A stretch of DNA of 64,000 bases from NCBI RefSeq assembly GCF_019656075.1, contig NZ_BPKZ01000002.1:62001-126000 (forward strand), in the 5' to 3' direction. Numbering within the stretch: the first letter of the stretch is position 1; the number at the start of each line of letters is the position of its first letter. Positions 36,049 to 58,340 of this stretch are shown in pieces. This DNA is from Leuconostoc palmae. GTDB lineage: Bacteria; Bacillota; Bacilli; Lactobacillales; Lactobacillaceae. Below the pieces are notes generated by a model, which made no database searches, was not told the origin of the DNA, and saw only the letters and a list, made by a program, of their open reading frames with translations. The translations under genes were made by a program, and so were the position numbers.

Positions 36049-36282
36049 ATGAAACATTCTTTTGGGTCAATTGTAAAAGCTTATCGGGAACGAAAAAGAC
36101 TCACACAATTGGAATTAGCTGTGAAATCAAAAGGGGAGTTATCAACGGAGACGATTTCAAAAGCTGAAACCGATCCAAGTTATAATCCGAAACTGACGAC
36201 GTTCATCAAATTTTACAAAATTATGGATGTGCCATTTGAAGAGATTGTTGCGACATTAGAGGGGACTGCTAATGATAAGTGA
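36049..36282 (+). CDS. XRE-family helix-turn-helix regulator
   Basis: 77 residues, almost entirely HTH_3: SIVKAYRERKRLTQLELAVK then TETISKAETDPSYNP. GGGAG ribosome-binding site and TTGACA upstream. Overlaps repA by 11 bases, as small regulators do in plasmid rep operons; probably controlled copy number or rep expression. Confidence 0.75.
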   Translation: MKHSFGSIVKAYRERKRLTQLELAVKSKGELSTETISKAETDPSYNPKLTTFIKFYKIMDVPFEEIVATLEGTANDK

Positions 36283-36676
36283 TCAAGATACACCCATGAA
36301 AATGGAGCGTGTTAGTAGAAATCAAGTAGAAACTAATGAACGATTCTATAAAATTCCAAAAGCACTGTTTGAAAATGAATTCTATGCCGACATGAAACTT
36401 GAAACAAAAATGGCTTATGCAATTCTGCGTGATCGTTTCTTGTTGTCAATTAAGAATAATTGGATTGATAAAAATGGTGATGTTTACTTGATTTACAAAA
36501 ACAGTGACCTGCAAACAATCCTTAGTGTTGGCGAGAAAAAAGTCATTAATTTGAAAAAAGATATGGCAGCTTACAGGGCGAGAACACAGAGTGTTAATGA
36601 ACTGAAAAACAGATATAAGAAAGCTAGTCCTGATGAAAAAGTTAAAATTCTGGATATTTTATATAATGCTAATTAA
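36272..36676 (+). pseudogene. repA: Internally deleted plasmid replication initiator (RepA_N)
   Basis: 134 residues behind GAGGGG. The N-terminal RepA_N domain is plain (ERFYKIPKALFENEFYADMK, KMAYAILRDRF, KNSDLQTILSVGEKKV), but about residue 97 it jumps from KKDMAA into a C-terminal-like tail (KNRYKKASPDEKVKILDIL). Normal initiators exceed 300 residues, so a central in-frame deletion is inferred. It signals an integrated or dead plasmid. Confidence 0.7.
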
Positions 36677-40953: not shown

Positions 40954-41005
40954 AATACAGATACTTAGCAAATCGAATTTGCATAATGAGTATCTGTATT
41001 TTTTT
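40954..41005 (+). terminator. Module C copy 1: nested hairpin terminator
   Basis: Outer arms AATACAGATACT/AGTATCTGTATT (40954-40965 and 40989-41000) enclose an inner hairpin GCAAAT/ATTTGC; T run follows. The left arm and inner hairpin recur at 44899-44931. Confidence 0.7.
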
Positions 41006-41074
41006 AGCAACTTAGTTGAGGAATCAAGATGTTAAACAGCCTTAAAATAAGCTTTAGAAAGCGTGGACAGTGAT

Positions 41075-41103
41075 TTAACATTGGTGTATGACATTGGTAT
41101 AAT
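41075..41103 (+). promoter_or_regulatory. Strong promoter in front of module A copy 2
   Basis: TTAACA (41075-41080), 17 bases, TATAAT (41098-41103), then AAGGAG (41109-41114), but no ATG or GTG follows at a proper distance; only ATA. A promoter and ribosome-binding site left without an intact gene, unless the transcript itself is the product. Confidence 0.6.
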
Positions 41104-41120
41104 AGAATAAGGAGTGTCTT

Positions 41121-41200
41121 ACAAATAAAAAAAGAATCAGGGAAATTACAGAAACATTTCCGGAATTTTACCAATTGATTAAACATCTGGTAAATGACTT
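41121..41200 (+). repeat. Plasmid module A, copy 2
   Basis: Reads NKKRIREITETFPEFYQLIK and on to VNDFT before a stop. Near-identical core to copies at 35702 and 44932. It lies after the promoter at 41075 and ahead of a leader like that upstream of the XRE/repA pair. Confidence 0.65.
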
Positions 41201-42650: not shown

Positions 42651-43691
42651 GAACAACTCTCACAAACTGATATTGGGCGTCAATTAGGTTATGACCCATC
42701 AGTGATTAGTCGTGAATTAGACCGTGGCAATGTACTAGATTTCTCAAATCTAGACCGTCACACCTTATTGAGAATGAACATTCATGCACGCATTAAGTAC
42801 TCAGCGCAACGTGGTCAATATATTGCGACTAAAAAGCGTTTTCGTATGGGACAAGGACTTTTATTAACACCAGAACTAAAAGATCTAATTGAACACTGGA
42901 TTAATGTGGAACACTGGACGCCTGAACAAATTGCCGGCAACGTGCAAGACGTAGAAGTATCGTCCTCAACCATTCGAGACTGGTCAAAAAGAGGGTTGAT
43001 TAATATTCGTACCCACAAATATCATCGTCAAGATGGTTCACCTAAGCAACGAGAATTAGCCAAGAATCAAAGAGCAAGACAACGAGAAATTGCCAGATTA
43101 CGAGAAAACTTACAAAAAAGTGGTGAATTAGTCCGTCATTCCATCTATGATCGTTCGCCAGTCGTGGCCAAGCGTAAACAATTTGGTCACTGGGAAATTG
43201 ATTTAGTGTTACCAATGAAACAAAATAACAATCAATACCAAGACCATTCAGCCATTATGACGGTTGTTGAACGAAAAACACGCTTTTATGCCTTAATCAA
43301 AGTTAAAAGTAAACAATCTAAAGATATGATTGAAGCGTTTAAATTATTTTATGAACGTTATGGTAAAGCAGTAAGAACGATTACCGCTGACAACGGTTCT
43401 GAATTCATCTCTTGGGATTTTTTGGAGTACGTTCAAAAAGAGCTTAAAATCAAGCTCTATTACTGCACACCATCATCACCACATCAACGAGGTTCTAACG
43501 AAAACCGCAACGGTAAACTGCGTGATTGGTTTCCCAAAGGCACAAGTTTTAAGCCAGTGAAGCAACGACAACTAGATGAAGTGGCAGATAAAATGAACGC
43601 AATGCCTATGAGAATAGCAATGCAAGGTAAGAGTCCGATTGAGTTGTTTGATAAGGAATATAACCCAATGCAGAGATATCGTATAAATTAA
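42651..43691 (+). mobile_element. IS30-family transposase, 5' truncated
   Basis: The frame opens at 42651 (NEQLSQTDIGRQLGYDPSVI) and runs to 43691. Seen: HTH region, WTPEQIAG, and the DDE core DRSPVVAKRKQFGHWEIDL, TADNGSEF and the Glu in GSNENRNGKLRDWFPKG. The first codons of a full IS30 transposase and the left inverted repeat are missing: copy joins directly to the preceding gene's stop. An internal ATG at 42702 is not a natural start. Probably inactive but the catalytic triad is present. Confidence 0.85.
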
Positions 43692-43738: not shown

Positions 43739-43780
43739 TGCTAAAATTTGTTTGTCCTCTATTCTAATATGAATTAGAAT
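43739..43780 (+). promoter_or_regulatory. Extended -10 and inverted repeat before EVE-like gene
   Basis: TGCTAAAAT (43739-43747) followed by an exact ATTCTAAT/ATTAGAAT repeat (43761-43768, 43773-43780), then AGGAG before ATG 43805. Confidence 0.5.
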
Positions 43781-43804
43781 TACACAACACTTTAGGAGCT
43801 GAAA

Positions 43805-44137
43805 ATGTCTAAGTCAAAAGTAATGATTATCAAGTTAAATAAAAATTTTAGTACTGAAAAAGAATTGAGACAGCGTGTTTCAGGTGCATGGAAAATAAAA
43901 ATCGATACAATTATCAATAATAAGATTAATCATATTGTTGTCATGTATCATCAAGTGGTCATAGCAGACTATTGTTTAGGAGCTCGGATTGGTTATCATT
44001 TAACTGGTTTAGATAAAGGCAGGGTCTGGTTTGATTTGGAGCCTTATGAAGGGAAAACACCGTTAAAAGGAAAAAATTTAATTATAAAACAGCCAATCCT
44101 GCTACTACAAAATCACTTACAGATTTACTTGATTTAG
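43805..44137 (+). CDS. EVE/PUA-like domain protein
   Basis: 110 residues behind TTTAGGAG. RQRVSGAWKIKIDTIINNK, INHIVVMYHQVVIADYCL and GRVWFDLEPYEGKTPLKGK follow the pattern of small EVE/PUA-like domains found beside or fused to nucleases and defence proteins (..AWKh..., hAVY.G.V...Y, GRW.F.G). Such domains read modified bases. The last 15 residues look frame-shifted: A_AAA_AAT at 44071-44077 permits a -1 shift into the next gene's frame, giving one continuous fusion. Confidence 0.55.
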   Translation: MSKSKVMIIKLNKNFSTEKELRQRVSGAWKIKIDTIINNKINHIVVMYHQVVIADYCLGARIGYHLTGLDKGRVWFDLEPYEGKTPLKGKNLIIKQPILLLQNHLQIYLI

Positions 44138-44139
44138 AA

Positions 44140-44883
44140 GTGAAAGGGGCACCAATATCAACAACGTCATTACAAACCAAAATTATAAATTTTATTAGGC
44201 AACCAATTCCTGATAACATTGGTGTAATCAGACAATCTGTGCCTGTATTATTTTTTGGCAATATTGAAACAGCGCGTTCGGCAACCATCAGCTTGAATCC
44301 ATCTGATTTAGAATTTCGTGATAATAAACAACAACTTTTAACTGCTAATAAAAAGAGATTAGTCGATCGTGATATATTGCACAAAAAGGATACTGATTAT
44401 TTGAGTTTAGAAGAAGCTGAAAAAGTTTATAATTCTTGTATCAATTATTTTAACAAATTTCCTTATAAACAGTGGTTTAATCAGCTAAATCGAATATTAT
44501 CTCCGTTAGGATTTTCTTATTTTGAAAATTCGTTAATTCATCTCGACATTACACCTTGGGCTACTTATCCAAAATGGGCAAATTTAGTAACAAAGCAAGA
44601 AGTACTCAAAGCTAGTCAACACATTTCAGACTACATTATTCAGCAAGGAAAATTAAAATACCTGTTTATCAATGGTAATGGTGCTTTTGAACATGTAAAG
44701 TCCTATTATAGTGACATTAACGTGCAAACCACAGAAATTATATGGTTAGATAGTAGAAAATGTACTGTTTATACTGGTAAAATTGGAAACTGTCGTTTTA
44801 TTGCTTGGAGTTTGTATGTTCAAGCTGCACTAACAATAAATGATAGAAATGCGCTCACAATGGCAATCAGTGAAAGATTATAA
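44140..44883 (+). CDS. Uracil-DNA-glycosylase-like protein
   Basis: 247 residues as read from GTG 44140, though the frame is open back to about 44047. PVLFFGNIETARSATISLNP (35-54) with NPSDLEF, the mid YKQWFNQLNRILSPLGFSY and HLDITPWATYPKW near 148 match a conserved family of UDG-fold-like proteins whose members show FGD...A.VGLNPS and HLD...AT.P.W. Enzymatic activity is unproven. No ribosome-binding site before GTG, which supports expression by frameshift from, or damage of, an EVE-UDG fusion. Confidence 0.55.
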   Translation: MKGAPISTTSLQTKIINFIRQPIPDNIGVIRQSVPVLFFGNIETARSATISLNPSDLEFRDNKQQLLTANKKRLVDRDILHKKDTDYLSLEEAEKVYNSCINYFNKFPYKQWFNQLNRILSPLGFSYFENSLIHLDITPWATYPKWANLVTKQEVLKASQHISDYIIQQGKLKYLFINGNGAFEHVKSYYSDINVQTTEIIWLDSRKCTVYTGKIGNCRFIAWSLYVQAALTINDRNALTMAISERL

Positions 44884-44898
44884 TTATAGCATATAAAA

Positions 44899-44976
44899 AA
44901 TACAGATACTAAGCAAATCGAATTTGCATAACCGGAATTTTACCAATTGATTAAACATCTGGTAAATGACTTGCAA
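44899..44976 (+). repeat. Modules C (copy 2) and A (copy 3) fused
   Basis: AATACAGATACT with the inner GCAAAT/ATTTGC hairpin (44899-44931) is joined directly to the module A core (44932-44976). In the 40.9-41.2 kb copy these are 150 bases apart, so this is a deletion derivative. Confidence 0.7.
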
Positions 44977-47303: not shown

Positions 47304-48537
47304 CGACAACCTCCAAACGGTTATTTATAATATTTACTTTCTTGCCCAGTAATATGCCACTGTGTCCGTCTTTGAAAGTAGTCAAAAAGTTTAATACTTC
47401 GGTTACTTTTGGCATCGTCATACCTTGCGCTCCTTTTCTTATGGCGGTACCCGAGATATTGTCTCGCCTTAAAACGATGTATGGTTTGACACCTGTTTCA
47501 TCGTAAATGTCATGAAGCAACATTCATCCCTCGTCTGTACCGAGAAGACCGTGCAGTCTCATATGTGGATGTTTCTGCCGAATAGTTTTGATAATAGCAT
47601 AAAAGCCATCATCTTGATAAAGTTGTGGTTCAAACAAGATTTCTACTTTTTTCGCTAGACCAGCCTCTTCAATCGCTGTTTTTAGCATATATACGCGATT
47701 TTCAGCTTCGTAAAAAACTTTGCCAGTGGGAAAAAAATTAACTAATGGGTCAGCTGATGCAGACTTTTCATAATAGCGCTTACCCGCTTCCTCTTTAACA
47801 ATTTCAATCATACCTTTATCTAAAAGATATTGATGCATTTTTGGAATAACGGTCGGATGAATGTATACCTTATCTAACTGACGTTCATTTATAAATTGTT
47901 TTAATATGGCAATATGTGATTTGTGCACAGGATTAAATGTACCAAGAAATAAACCGACACCACCTTTAGAAGGTATGAGGCCCCAAATATCTGTTATTAA
48001 ACTTATAAATATACCAATAATACCAAGTAATAGTCCCAATACGATAAAAATTATCTGAATTTTTTTATAACCTATTGCAGCTAACGCACTAATAATCACA
48101 TTAAAACTCAAAGCAAAAAAAATATTAGCAAATCGATTACCTTTAGCATGGTTGCTCATCATGATGGCAAGATATTGTAACCCTTGTGAAGCCAAAGAAG
48201 TTAAACACACTGCGCCTACTAAACCACCAACCATTCGTAAATTAGTCTCATCGATGACATGCCCTTTGATAAGTAGTCCAAGAGCAAAAAGATTATAAAG
48301 GCTTTGCCATACAAATTTAGCAAACTTGCTAGCAAACATCGAGGCAGTAAGTCTGAACGTTTGTTTTTCCAAATAGGTACTAACAAATGTAAATATAGGT
48401 AAAAATAGTGCTGTAAATATGCTAATGCCGATTAAATAACGATTGGTGTACTGACTCGTTGGAATCGCATAAGCCAAATACATGATAACTCCCATACTAA
48501 GAGCAATTTTCAAAAGAATACTGTGTAATAATTTCAT
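47296..48537 (-). pseudogene. Six-helix membrane protein fused to NadD-like nucleotidyltransferase, in-frame TGA
   Basis: ATG 48537 behind GGAGA. Residues 1-200 hold six membrane segments (start MKLLHSILLKIALSMGVIMY); from about 205 a cytidylyltransferase/NadD-type domain begins: LFLGTFNPVHKSHIAIL (the HxGH motif reads HKSH) and, near the end, the ISGTAIRKG block equal to ISxTxIR. An in-frame TGA (47524-47526) falls between LLGTDEG and MLLHDIYDETG, with no other damage. Membrane-tethered NMN/nucleotide adenylyltransferases of this layout are not known to me. Confidence 0.65.
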
Positions 48538-48555
48538 AAAAAGTCTCCAATTGCG

Positions 48556-48974
48556 AGCAATCTCTCGTTGGCGTGCACGTTGGTTTTTAGCTAACTCACG
48601 TTGTTTAGGAGAACCATCTTGACGATGATATTTGTGGGTACGAATATTAATCAACCCTCTTTTTGACCAGTCTCGAATGGTTGAGGACGATACTTCTACG
48701 TCTTGCACGTTGCCGGCAATTTGTTCAGGCGTCCAGTGTTCCACATTAATCCAGTGTTCAATTAGTTCTTTTATTTCTGGTGTTAATAAAAGTCCTTGTC
48801 CCATACGAAAACGCTTTTTAGTAGCAATATATTGACCGCGTTGCGCCGAATACTTAATACGAGCATGAATGTTCATTCTTAATAAAGAGTGACGGTCTAG
48901 ATTAGAGAAGTCTAGCACATTGCCACGGTCTAATTCACGACTAATCACTGATGGGTCATAACCTAATTGACTGA
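48556..48974 (-). mobile_element. IS30-family transposase fragment, copy 2
   Basis: About 139 codons matching the N-terminal part of the 42651 copy (QLGYDPSVISRELDRG to KNQRARQREIAR), ending abruptly at 48556 where the next gene's leader begins. The DDE domain is gone. A frame into the membrane gene is open, but that gene has its own ribosome-binding site and ATG. Confidence 0.85.
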
Positions 48975-55844: not shown

Positions 55845-56270
55845 TAGTTCGCTAATTAGTTTTTTATTATCTGGTTTCATCGCATTTTTTATTGCTACCT
55901 GAGTTAATTTCTTACGATTAGGGTTTTCAATAAATAATGGTACGATTTCTTCTACAACATCGCTTAATTCTAAACCATAAAAGCTACTTACTGAAGTCGT
56001 ATGTGATTGTAACCAAACACGACTACCTATCAAGAGCCGATCCCAAGCATGAATATCAGGTAAATTTAATAAATCAGCATAATACTGAGTCGCAATAACA
56101 TACTTGAAATCACCAACGTTGCCGTGCTTGTCCATAGCATATTTTTGAAATCGCGGTTTTAAAATTCCTTGTTTGATGAGGGTTGCTGCAATTTGTTTCA
56201 TATAAACATGTATTCGCGGTTCAACCTTAAATCCTAAATAAAAAGTAACATGAGTATGGCGCTTATTATC
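55818..56270 (-). pseudogene. kup: 3' remnant of Kup potassium transporter
   Basis: The minus-strand frame is open from 56270 and reads DNKRHTHVTFYLGFKVEPRI, VGDFKYVIATQYYAD, WLQSHTTSVSSFYGLELSDV and EEIVPLF. These are the cytosolic C-terminal domain of Kup (LGFK.., GDFRFV, WLQNHTTS..FGLEYSDVV). All twelve membrane helices are missing. An ATG at 56201 would give only 127 residues without a ribosome-binding site. Confidence 0.75.
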
Positions 56271-56323
56271 TCACAAATAACAACAAAGTTAAACAAATTT
56301 GACTTAAAATATCGCTTAAATAA

Positions 56324-56350
56324 AAAAGTAACGTACTGACGTTGCTTTTA
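56324..56350. terminator. Terminator after gpx remnant
   Basis: AAAAGTAACGT/ACGTTGCTTTT with one G-U pair and a four-base loop. Confidence 0.65.
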
Positions 56351-56352
56351 TC

Positions 56353-56812
56353 TTAAATTAATTGTTCAATATCAGGTATTATTTTTATAGGATCTGTCTT
56401 TGGGGAATAACGGCTAACAGGTCGCCCTTCTCGATCAATCAAAAATTTAGTAAAGTTCCATTTGATTGTACTTCCCATTGCACTGGGCGTCCCTTTATGG
56501 ACTTGTTTCCTTACCATTGACTGAAATTATTTCATGCATAGGAAATGAAACACCATATCTTAATTGACAAGCTTCTGCCGCTTCGTGACTCGAATTCAAT
56601 TCTTGTTTAAATTGATTTGATGGAAATCCAAGAACAACGAGTCCCACATCTTTATATTTTTGATATAACTTTTCCAATGATTTGAACTGCTGTGCAAAAC
56701 CGCATTTCGTTGCTGTATTAACAACAATAATAATATTCCCATGATATTTACTAAGAGAATAAAGTTCCCCATTTTCGGCTACCACACCAAAATCATATAT
56801 ATTAGCTACCAT
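56353..56812 (-). pseudogene. gpx: Glutathione-peroxidase-family gene, frameshifted
   Basis: The first 105 residues are intact: NTATKCGFAQQF (peroxidatic Cys), LGFPSNQFKQE, and GVSFPMHEIISVNGK. The frame closes after KETSP at 56495, but the expected C-terminal IKWNFTKFLIDREGRPVSRY follows in another frame, ending at 56353-56355. About 15-20 codons between appear lost. The thiol peroxidase is unlikely to be functional. Confidence 0.8.
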
Positions 56813-56829
56813 AATATCTCCTTATATAG

Positions 56830-56860
56830 AAAAACGGCCATTTTAAAATTAAAATAGCCG
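56830..56860 (-). terminator. Terminator of former bdh gene
   Basis: CGGC.ATTTTAA paired with TTAAAAT.GCCG and T run on the minus strand. Confidence 0.6.
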
Positions 56861-56880
56861 CTGTCTAAACGTATATAGTA

Positions 56881-57257
56881 TTATTTGCTAAAATCAACTA
56901 AAATTTTAGCTTGAGACTTGTCGTGAGTTAGAGACTCAAATCCATCGGTTACAATATTATCTAATTCAATAATATCTGTAATGACAGGCTTAACGTCAAT
57001 TTGTCCACCACTAACCAAATCAACCGTTTGTTTGAATGTTTCTTTAGAATATGCAATCGTTGTTGTAATCTTAATACCAGCATTCATCAATTGCATTGGA
57101 TTGAAACTAATTGGTCTTGCAAAAATTGACACAATAACAACTGTTCCACGTGGCTTAGTTGCATCGATACTTTGTTCAAAAGTCTTTTGCACACCAGCAA
57201 CTTCAAATGTTACATCAGCTCCGCCAGGAATAATTTCATTAATTGCTGCAATAGTCG
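56881..57257 (-). pseudogene. bdhA: 3' remnant of butanediol/alcohol dehydrogenase
   Basis: Open from the junction near 57257: INEIIPGGADVTFEVAGVQK, GTVVIVSIFARPISFNP, ITTTIAYSKETFKQTVDLVS and the terminal KSQAKILVDFSK. This is the C-terminal third of a zinc MDR of the (R,R)-butanediol dehydrogenase type. The zinc-binding N-terminal half is absent; it is joined to mleA sequence upstream. Confidence 0.75.
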
Positions 57258-57443
57258 TTTTTCCAATGGTGTTTGTTTACTCTTGAATTGCTTATAAGCT
57301 TGCTTTGTTTGTTGTTCTAGTGTTTGCACCTGACTAGGAAGTAACCCTATTAAATTATACTGTTCACGTTCTTTCTCCGTAAACGCTGTTCCTTTGTTTA
57401 AAAAAGGATTATTTAGTAATTGGTATCCCGTTGTAGTCATCAT
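57258..57443 (-). pseudogene. mleA: 5' remnant of malolactic enzyme
   Basis: ATG 57443 behind GGAGG. TTTGYQLLNNPFLNKGTAFT, EKEREQYNLIGLLPSQVQTL and KQTPLEKR are the N-terminus of malolactic/malic enzymes. After about 62 residues the frame enters bdh DNA and stops at 57210. Divergent from the mleR remnant, as in intact mle loci. Confidence 0.8.
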
Positions 57444-57580
57444 TTTTTTCCTCCAAATTTTATCGTTATTAAACCACAAGTTGACTATAACGCTGTATTT
57501 AGTTTATAGTCAAAACAGCAAAACATCATAAATGAAATTTATACTATGTGTCCTAAACGTTGATATGGAGGTTAAAGAGC

Positions 57581-58295
57581 GTGAATTTTAATGATTTAAA
57601 TTACTATAAAAAATTATATGAAGAAAAAAATTTACAAAAGTGGCTAATTTTTTCAATATAACGCAGCCTTCAGTATCTACTGCGATTAAACGATTAGAAT
57701 CATTTTTTAATACGACATTGGTCATACGTGGTACAACACACTCGATAATTAGCTTCACTGATGCAGGGAAACAACTATATCAACATACACAATCTATTTT
57801 GAATGAAATAAACAGCACAAAAATGGAATTAACTCGTTTAAAGCAACACACAACCATAATTGGTCTTCCACCCATTATTAAAAATGCTTTTTTGGTAAAA
57901 TAGCAACTGCAACTAAAGAGTTCGATCGTCAGTTCAATATTCAACACATGACATTATATGAAGCCGGATCAAACACTTTAAAAAAATCACTTATCAATGG
58001 TAATATTGATATTGCACTCTTAGGATCCTTAAACCAAGATGATGATGATGATAGATTAAAAACTTTTCAACTAGCTTCAACACCATTTTACGTATTTCTA
58101 TCCTCTAAACACCCTTTGGCCAACAAAAAAGGGATTGTCACAATTCCACTATTAGATAGTGTACAACCTATATTCAATATTAATATTGCTTTCAGAAAAA
58201 ACCATGTTTTAACAGTCGAAGAAGAAATGCTGGTATCGGTACTATCTCAAAAAGATAATAATCACCAATATTCTATTATCGGATATAATAAATAA
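57581..58295 (+). pseudogene. mleR: MleR-like LysR regulator, multiple frameshifts
   Basis: GTG 57581 behind GGAGG reads MNFNDLNYYKKLYEEKNLQ, then loses one base near 57637; the next frame gives VANFFNITQPSVSTAIKRLE, the helix-turn-helix. A second one-base loss in a T6 run near 57890 closes it at LVK; the following frame reads FGKIATATKEFDRQFNIQHM and on to NNHQYSIIGYNK at 58295. Effector domain looks shortened. Confidence 0.82.
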
Positions 58296-58340
58296 GATTC
58301 AATTGACAAACTTTTCAACAGAAAGTGACAAACAATAATT

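What the first reader, a model, noticed from the sequence alone, without database searches (positions are those of the whole stretch)
43739..44883. EVE/PUA-like and UDG-like cassette with a possible -1 frameshift: best candidate for an undescribed system
A small EVE-like base-reader domain and a UDG-fold-like protein are joined by overlapping open frames; A_AAA_AAT at 44071-44077 permits a -1 shift that yields one fused protein, and the second frame has no ribosome-binding site. An inverted repeat sits in the promoter. In a mobile island, a base-reader plus glycosylase-like module suggests a modified-DNA-targeting defence or repair function.
Basis: partly seen in the sequence, partly recalled or inferred. 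Interest (0 to 1): 0.65.

Follow-up and report, generated by a model that had tools for sequence, protein, structure and literature searches.

The report
Broken modified-DNA reader–glycosylase gene
A bacterium carries, in a patch of mobile-DNA debris, what looks like the remains of one gene joining a sensor for chemically modified DNA bases to an enzyme that cuts bases out of DNA, a plausible weapon against viruses with disguised DNA, but this copy is split by a shift in the reading frame and is probably no longer working.

Summary
In detail: ORF1 (43805-44137) and an overlapping -1 frame (to 44883), with A_AAA_AAT at 44071-44077. The break falls inside the first domain: a profile of nine relatives matches positions 2-90 in frame 0 and 79-109 in the -1 frame; all nine keep the T[AS]NP motif in frame.

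The first domain shows no EVE or ASCH match; its first half matches the 5hmC-sensing domain of the defence nuclease CMoRE. The second is a UDG-fold glycosylase (pLDDT 94, Z 12) with the catalytic motifs of the anti-phage glycosylase Brig3, though motif-to-motif distances differ and Brig3's DNA-inserting asparagine is a tyrosine.

No other sensor–glycosylase fusion or pair turned up. The heptamer is common here, absent at this site in two Leuconostoc relatives, and without a notable stimulator. By eye, two other genes in the window are frame-broken.

Best reading: a one-off sensor–glycosylase fusion, now decayed or mis-assembled, rather than programmed frameshifting; a new combination of two known anti-modified-phage modules, known from a single broken copy.

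The parts
43761..43780 (+). 8-nt perfect inverted repeat with 4-nt loop upstream of ORF1, overlapping a promoter-like -10 (TAGAAT 43775-43780)
   Evidence: promoter-like matches here are only moderately above shuffles (14 against 8.2, sd 2.8); function not tested
43805..44137 (+). ORF1: CMoRE-sensor-like N domain, in frame for its first ~90 residues; last ~20 residues are out of frame relative to the relatives
44071..44077 (+). A_AAA_AAT, the place of the frame break
44077..44145 (+). C-terminal end of the N domain (FNYKTANPATTKSLTDLLDLEVK) in the -1 frame; two Leuconostoc relatives stop right after EVK, here there is no stop
44143..44154 (+). AAAGGGG plus spacer in front of an in-frame ATA: possible relic of the glycosylase gene's own start region
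   Evidence: sequence; inference
44155..44883 (+). UDG-superfamily glycosylase domain with Brig3-type catalytic motifs N48, E53, W107, F108, H129, D131 (numbered from 44155)
42702..43691 (+). IS30-type transposase ORF directly upstream
44899..44972 (+). copy of a repeat whose two halves also lie at 40954-40986 and 41155-41200; downstream edge of the cassette

Best explanation
The cassette is a translational fusion of two modules that otherwise occur apart: an N-terminal domain homologous to the modified-cytosine sensor of the CMoRE restriction enzyme, and a UDG-superfamily DNA glycosylase with Brig3-type catalytic motifs. In working order it would have found modified bases (5-hydroxymethyl-type pyrimidines are the first guess) in incoming phage DNA with the sensor, flipped a modified base into the glycosylase pocket and cut it out, leaving abasic sites that block replication. 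In this copy an indel at the A run splits the protein, so the locus is most likely a recent pseudogene (or the frame break is an assembly error); basal slippage would give at most traces of full-length protein. Shown: glycosylase fold, homology of both halves (for the sensor, over its first half), catalytic motifs, frame break. Inferred: original fusion, modified-base target, anti-phage role, loss of function.
For: Glycosylase: 53 relatives in genome contigs and 3 in viral contigs; AF2 pLDDT 94.4, pTM 0.91; best VIA-align Z 12.2, rmsd 3.4 over 173 residues, T. maritima UDG 1vk2; PF03167 in 4 of 55 family rows. 49 of 55 rows, the window included, carry N-P-S-x-x-E / Y-x-x-W-F / H-x-D, the pattern of Brig3 pocket residues N50, P51, S52, E55 / Y97, W100, F101 / H125, D127, of which N50, E55, W100 and D127 are needed for Brig3 defence (PMC13160076 section 8). 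Sensor: N-domain profile against CMoRE-type sensor profile Probab 91.8, E 7.5e-7 (95.5, 1.4e-8 with bridge L108); controls EVE 1.2 and 0.2, ASCH 0.25, UDG 0.1, reversed CMoRE 0.16. A CMoRE-only profile has the Leuconostoc relative as its single hit below E 1 among 4257 ORFs (E 0.019; 0.0011 with L108). Fusion: the stop that closes the N-domain gene in two Leuconostoc relatives is gone, the codon at the glycosylase's expected start is ATA, and both share one frame. Lesion: domain split over two frames; by three-frame reading a gpx-like and a lysR-like gene are also frame-broken and an adh-like gene truncated; truncated RepA_N and IS30 sequence around.
Against: A single copy: no fusion or gene pair in 55 glycosylase loci (none of 692 neighbour ORFs below E 0.28); glycosylase search gave one weak, unfused relative in 300 other genomes of the family and none in 344 others of the order (the samples overlap). 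Distances between motifs differ from Brig3: F-N 14 against 19, N-Y 56 against 47; no row of 55 has Brig3's values for these two, and no Brig sequence was aligned. The window glycosylase sits on a long branch (2.48, place unsure) and departs from near-invariant positions: Y221 where 47 of 55 have N (place of Brig3's inserting N225), L127 and I128 where 51 have A and 51 have C. Sensor match covers 57 of 113 columns; the -1-frame tail alone does not match CMoRE (E 180), and ORF1 alone scores E 0.004 at Z=1000; hhalign E-values are pairwise, from small profiles. No named defence gene among eight neighbours scanned with Pfam. Nothing shows activity on any base.
Confidence: 0.55

Rival explanations
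1. Programmed -1 frameshifting (or transcript slippage) at A_AAA_AAT makes two products: a short reader protein and, at a set ratio, the reader-glycosylase fusion.
For: A heptamer of the X_XXY_YYZ form stands exactly where the frame changes; downstream RNA folds at -12.4 kcal/mol, z -1.5; the -1 frame stays open for 277 codons.
Against: The heptamer is common: 17 in frame in 50 long open ORFs, 126 in the window. Neither Leuconostoc relative has it at the site. The short product would lack the conserved end of its domain. 17 of 200 shuffles fold as well. Other genes in the window look frame-broken by eye.
Confidence: 0.12
2. Two separate genes, never a working fusion: the reader gene lost its end by frameshift and stop loss, while the glycosylase is still made by re-initiation at GTG 44140 (2 nt after the ORF1 stop) or at ATA 44155 behind AAAGGGG.
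For: Relatives of both halves are found apart; AAAGGGG stands at start-site spacing before ATA; sharing a frame has a chance of about one in three.
Confidence: 0.25
3. The gene is intact and the frame break is a sequencing or assembly error in an A run.
For: Homopolymer position; draft genome of 28 contigs; the rest of both domains is open.
Against: 68 runs of 7 or more A or T lie inside 50 long open ORFs of the window, so such runs are generally read well; frame-broken genes elsewhere in the window suggest real decay (or, if they too are errors, a poor assembly, which cannot be told here).
Confidence: 0.15
4. The glycosylase is a host repair enzyme (uracil, hydroxymethyluracil or mismatch repair) or a helper of DNA base hypermodification rather than an antiviral effector.
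For: UDG fold; a sister clade sits in a conserved operon with thymidylate synthase, an aGPT-Pplase3/ADDT protein and an M78 peptidase (22 of 55 loci; Pfam counts 19, 20, 20 of 130 neighbours).
Against: Scattered presence (1 of 300 other genomes of the family; 31 of 397 others of the class) and the mobile setting fit housekeeping repair poorly; Brig3 pocket motifs are kept; aGPT-Pplase and UDG both appear among domains of predicted defence systems in DefensePredictor (PMC13092281, passages and figure legend).
Confidence: 0.2

Closest known systems
Brig3 / Brig1 anti-phage DNA glycosylases (PMC13160076 preprint; PMC11078745)
   Same: UDG-superfamily glycosylase; N-P-S-x-x-E, Y-x-x-W-F and H-x-D patterns of the Brig3 pocket with the same spacing inside each motif; Brig1's best structural match, S. 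tokodaii UDG 4ZBY (PMC11078745 passage), is also Foldseek's best here
   Different: Distances between motifs differ from Brig3; Y instead of the inserting N225; fused to a sensor domain; frame-broken; no Brig sequence was at hand for direct alignment, so kinship to Brig itself is by motif pattern only
CMoRE, a GIY-YIG type IV restriction enzyme with a 5hmC/5ghmC sensor domain (PMC12923530; PDB 9U75, 9U7U)
   Same: N domain homologous to its C-terminal sensor domain by profile comparison over the first 57 columns
   Different: Domain is N-terminal here and joined to a glycosylase instead of a nuclease; shorter; relatives in Bacilli mostly stand alone, mostly on plasmids
Brig3-BapA operon (PMC13160076, passages)
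   Same: A Brig glycosylase working with a nucleic-acid-binding beta-barrel partner encoded by overlapping ORFs
   Different: BapA is a two-barrel ASCH-type glucosyl hydrolase; the N domain here shows no profile match to ASCH
EVE-nuclease modification-dependent restriction enzymes (PMC7641849, passages; PMC7897488, listing only)
   Same: Same design: modified-base reader plus DNA-attacking domain
   Different: Reader is not EVE by profile; effector removes bases instead of cutting the backbone; 'glycosylase' occurs 0 times in the EVE survey PMC7641849

Membership tests
UDG superfamily | UDG fold | tested here: met
   AF2 pLDDT 94.4; VIA-align Z 12.2 to 1vk2, Foldseek best 4zby E 1.3e-4
UDG superfamily | Sequence match to PF03167 | tested here: inconclusive
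   Window protein: no Pfam family at E 0.01; 4 of 55 family rows match, best 5e-5
Brig-type anti-phage glycosylase | Catalytic/pocket residues N50, E55, W100, D127 of Brig3 | tested here: met
   N48, E53, W107, D131 of the window domain; motif set in 49 of 55 rows; matched by motif pattern, not by alignment to Brig3
Brig-type anti-phage glycosylase | Spacing between the Brig3 motifs | tested here: not met
   F-N 14 against 19, N-Y 56 against 47, W-H 22 against 25
Brig-type anti-phage glycosylase | DNA-inserting asparagine (Brig3 N225) | tested here: not met
   Y221 in the window; N in 47 of 55 rows; position assigned by motif context only
Brig-type anti-phage glycosylase | Excision of modified bases and phage restriction | not testable with these tools
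   needs bench work
Brig-type anti-phage glycosylase | Defence-island context | tested here: inconclusive
   Eight neighbouring window proteins scanned with Pfam: HTH, RepA_N, IS30 integrase core, DUF3990, DUF3278, cytidylyltransferase-like, one without match; no named defence system. PADLOC was run only on the two proteins themselves (no hit), not on neighbours
CMoRE sensor domain | Profile homology to the CMoRE C-terminal domain | tested here: met
   hhalign Probab 91.8, E 7.5e-7 over 57 columns, controls at or below 1.3; hmmsearch E 0.019 and 0.0011 for the Leuconostoc relative
CMoRE restriction enzyme | GIY-YIG nuclease domain in the same protein | tested here: not met
   No such Pfam match in either protein; the partner domain is UDG-fold
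EVE domain (PF01878) | Pfam or profile match | tested here: not met
   No EVE match; hhalign Probab 1.2, 0.2 and 0.24 against small EVE profiles of 2, 3 and 8 rows. Fold not tested: single-sequence model pLDDT 40
ASCH domain (PF04266) | Pfam or profile match | tested here: not met
   No ASCH match; hhalign Probab 0.25 and 0.08
Programmed -1 frameshift gene | Slippery heptamer at the junction | tested here: met
   A_AAA_AAT 44071-44077, but common in the window
Programmed -1 frameshift gene | Site conserved in relatives | tested here: not met
   0 of 2 Leuconostoc relatives; both read straight through
Programmed -1 frameshift gene | Stimulatory structure | tested here: inconclusive
   z -1.51, 17 of 200 shuffles fold as well

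The most novel reading that the evidence does not exclude
A single-polypeptide sensor-glycosylase defence system: a CMoRE-type modified-cytosine reader delivers a Brig-type glycosylase to phage DNA, and in this strain the full-length form is made only by -1 slippage at A_AAA_AAT (or switched by changes in the A run), keeping a dangerous base-excising enzyme at a low, tunable level.
Probability: 0.12. Interest if true: 0.75.

Novelty: new variant of a known kind. Interest (0 to 1): 0.5.

Why it matters
Brig glycosylases (2024, 2026) and the CMoRE reader (2026) were described separately. This locus suggests that nature joins a modified-base reader to a base-excising effector, as it does with nucleases. 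It also gives a testable function to a small plasmid protein family annotated as hypothetical in lactic acid bacteria and staphylococci (about 100-114 aa, T[AS]NP motif near the end): stand-alone modified-base readers. And it ties a wide glycosylase family, 22 of whose 55 loci examined carry a thymidylate-synthase / aGPT-Pplase operon, to the Brig3 catalytic pattern. The value is limited by there being one, broken, copy.

Tried and rejected
EVE and ASCH labels: Pfam scans and hhalign against genomic PF01878 and PF04266 members (one ASCH locus, L128, was dropped because its frame could not be placed) gave nothing. NCBIfam, PADLOC and PHROGs scans of both halves: no match; on 55 glycosylase rows NCBIfam gave none and PADLOC two stray single matches. 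PDB by sequence for the glycosylase: no credible hit. Structure of the N domain: single-sequence AF2 failed (pLDDT 40) and was not used. A first genome-contig scan and a viral-contig scan with the glycosylase alone found nothing. Viral-contig scans for the N domain found no relatives (one search stopped for lack of conserved stretches); a motif pattern gave 5 stretches of which only L110 had a short motif match (E 0.0015). A phylum-wide search with ORF1 gave 12 other genomes of 397 at E up to 0.1, best 0.0016, none borne out by the N-domain profile at E 0.05. The N-domain profile found 1 other genome (G481) in 397 of the class. L108-like proteins in viral contigs: none. Phage records: no glycosylase or N-domain match. 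Near-identical DNA in plasmids: 183 records, the 20 listed each covering 1% of the query, IS3 fragments where annotated. Programmed frameshifting was considered and rated low. Absence of Brig or CMoRE chains from fold lists was not used as evidence.

Full report
WHAT IS THERE. The window lies in a 1.39-Mb draft genome of 28 contigs. Its genus is taken to be Leuconostoc, by inference only, from the named plasmid hits. ORF1 (43805-44137, 110 aa) is followed by a -1 frame open from about 44050 to 44883. The locus stands between an IS30-type transposase ORF and one copy of a repeat, in a stretch with a truncated RepA_N gene and a second, truncated IS30 copy: a patch of mobile-DNA debris.

THE FRAME BREAK CUTS A DOMAIN. 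One genome of the same genus (1 of 18 others) holds a stand-alone 114-residue gene, 56% identical over residues 1-95, that reads on without a break to ...KTANPATTKDLQELLEIEVK and stops. A L. carnosum plasmid holds a 5'-truncated copy with the same kind of ending. A plasmid search with the 114-residue protein found 10 records at E up to 1. Eight were used; a duplicate L. plantarum record and a partial Streptomyces hit were dropped. With the genus relative this gives nine relatives, from Leuconostoc, Lactiplantibacillus, Levilactobacillus, Macrococcus, Staphylococcus and Paraclostridium, all with T[AS]NP in frame (T96, N98, P99 invariant). A profile of these nine hits the window genome twice: positions 2-90 in frame 0 (E 2.7e-21) and 79-109 in the -1 frame (E 4.7e-6). 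ORF1 is thus a broken gene relative to them, and its last 20 residues are out of frame.

NOT A CONVINCING PROGRAMMED SHIFT. The two Leuconostoc relatives do not have the heptamer at that place. It is common here: 126 occurrences against 107.5 expected, 17 in frame in 50 open ORFs of at least 150 aa. The RNA downstream is only slightly more stable than shuffles (z -1.51). By three-frame reading, a glutathione-peroxidase-like gene (56.2-56.8 kb) and a LysR-type gene (57.6-58.3 kb) are also frame-broken, and an alcohol-dehydrogenase-like gene is truncated (names from the look of the sequence, no family scan). An assembly error remains possible, although 68 A or T runs of 7 or more lie inside those 50 open ORFs.

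A FUSION BEFORE THE BREAK. The -1 frame runs from the end of the first domain (EVK, where both Leuconostoc relatives stop) through GAP into the glycosylase without a stop. The codon where glycosylase relatives start is ATA, behind AAAGGGG. Loss of both the stop of gene 1 and a usual start codon of gene 2 is what a translational fusion leaves; this is inference, and two decayed adjacent genes remain a rival.

THE SECOND DOMAIN. Relatives are scattered: 1 of 300 other genomes of the family (weak), 31 of 397 others of the class, 0 of 344 others of the order (samples overlap), one plasmid record, in Leptospira, no phage record. A four-row alignment then found 53 loci in genome contigs and 3 in viral contigs. 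54 of these 56 entered the family alignment; L098 (same match as L097) and L095 (below threshold) were left out. Of the 54, 49 lie in ORFs of at most 323 aa; the five longer ones are a tandem double glycosylase (L057), three with other C-terminal parts (L046, L091, L096) and one that looks over-extended upstream (L045). AlphaFold2 gives pLDDT 94.4 and pTM 0.91; the closest solved folds are thermophile UDGs and UdgX (VIA-align Z 12.2 to 10.4). 49 of 55 rows, the window included, carry N-P-S-x-x-E / Y-x-x-W-F / H-x-D. In Brig3 (PMC13160076, section 8, read) N50, P51, S52, E55, Y97, W100, F101, H125 and D127 make or line the pocket, and N50, E55, W100 and D127 are required for defence. This match is by motif pattern; no Brig sequence was available. 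Against it: the distances between motifs differ (F-N 14 against 19, N-Y 56 against 47; no row of 55 has Brig3's values for these two). The window also differs at the place of Brig3's inserting N225 (Y221; N in 47 of 55) and at L127 and I128 (A and C in 51 of 55 each), and lies on a long branch whose place is unsure (2.48): changed specificity or loss of constraint.

A SISTER CLADE IN A BASE-MODIFICATION OPERON. In 22 of 55 loci the glycosylase lies near thymidylate synthase, aGPT-Pplase3/ADDT and an M78-peptidase gene (Pfam counts 19, 20 and 20 of 130 neighbours). With the Leptospira plasmid row, 23 such rows and three rows without the full label (two of them on short contigs that keep the thymidylate synthase gene) form one starred clade of 26 rows (99/99). 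DefensePredictor names aGPT-Pplase and UDG among domains of predicted defence systems (PMC13092281, passages). The window falls outside this clade in the tree.

THE FIRST DOMAIN. It is not EVE or ASCH by Pfam or by comparison with small profiles of those families (Probab below 2). A weak PDB hit pointed to CMoRE (9u75, E 0.23; 9u7u, E 0.63), a restriction enzyme whose C-terminal domain binds 5hmC (PMC12923530: abstract, section 11 and passages). An E. coli plasmid protein 97.9% identical to the 9u75 piece, taken as CMoRE, and four relatives were fetched. Their sensor profile matches the N-domain profile at Probab 91.8, E 7.5e-7, over 57 columns of its first half; with the bridging protein L108 95.5, E 1.4e-8, over 84 columns; controls (EVE, ASCH, UDG, reversed CMoRE) are all at or below 1.3. 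As a one-way test, a CMoRE-only profile run over 4257 ORFs has the Leuconostoc relative as its single hit below E 1 (0.019; 0.0011 with L108), and the Paraclostridium relative scores 3.4e-6 at Z=1000. The window's own ORF1 scores 0.004 at Z=1000 and its -1-frame tail does not match, so for the window protein the link runs largely through its relatives.

NO OTHER FUSION OR PAIR. The N-domain and CMoRE profiles find nothing below E 0.28 among 692 neighbour ORFs of the 55 glycosylase loci, and no glycosylase ORF among 4257 ORFs. One library search for papers holding at least three of CMoRE, Brig1, Brig3, DNA glycosylase and GIY-YIG gave only the Brig3 preprint, so I found no print mention of such a fusion; that is one search of open papers.

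HOW IT PROBABLY WORKED. Reader binds modified cytosine in phage DNA; glycosylase flips out and removes a modified base; abasic sites stop replication, as reported for Brig1 and Brig3 (PMC11078745, passages; PMC13160076, abstract, section 8 and passages). Steps shown here: homology, fold, motifs. Steps inferred: substrate, antiviral role, cooperation. In this strain the locus is most likely dead or nearly so.

VERDICT. The modules are better named CMoRE-sensor-like and Brig-like; the 'possible frameshift' is most likely decay. Interest 0.5: the combination would surprise specialists, but it rests on one broken copy.

Noticed in passing
22 of the loci L059-L097: Conserved operon thymidylate synthase - Brig-like glycosylase - aGPT-Pplase3/ADDT - M78 peptidase across many phyla, also on a Leptospira plasmid (L022); a stronger defence candidate than the window locus.
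   Followed up: partly
L037, L039, L099-L104: Small, mostly plasmid-borne protein family (about 100-114 aa) in Bacilli and one Clostridia plasmid, homologous to the CMoRE 5hmC sensor but standing alone; in Lpb. plantarum (L099 4995-5633) it carries an extra C-terminal part of about 90 residues.
   Followed up: partly
L108 34-2470: CMoRE-sensor-like 112-aa protein between a helicase-HNH gene and a gene with a GIY-YIG look (by eye; no Pfam match at 0.01): possible restriction cassette.
   Followed up: partly
phage hits H53-H69: Large Serratia, Pseudomonas, Klebsiella and other phages carry CMoRE-sensor-like stretches, some annotated as GIY-YIG or homing nucleases.
   Followed up: no
window 56200-58300: Glutathione-peroxidase-like and LysR-type genes look frame-broken, an alcohol-dehydrogenase-like gene is truncated: signs of gene decay.
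   Followed up: partly
window 47524-48948 and 42702-43691: Two inverted IS30-type copies, one truncated and running into a cytidylyltransferase-like gene fragment (PF01467).
   Followed up: no
window 40954-41200 and 44899-44972: The same repeat occurs split in two at one place and whole at the other, suggesting an insertion or a mobile end.
   Followed up: no
L057 7815-9470: Tandem fusion of two Brig-like glycosylase domains in one 552-aa ORF (by eye; no Pfam match).
   Followed up: no
window 36272-36676: Truncated plasmid replication protein (RepA_N) behind an HTH gene: plasmid remains in the contig.
   Followed up: no
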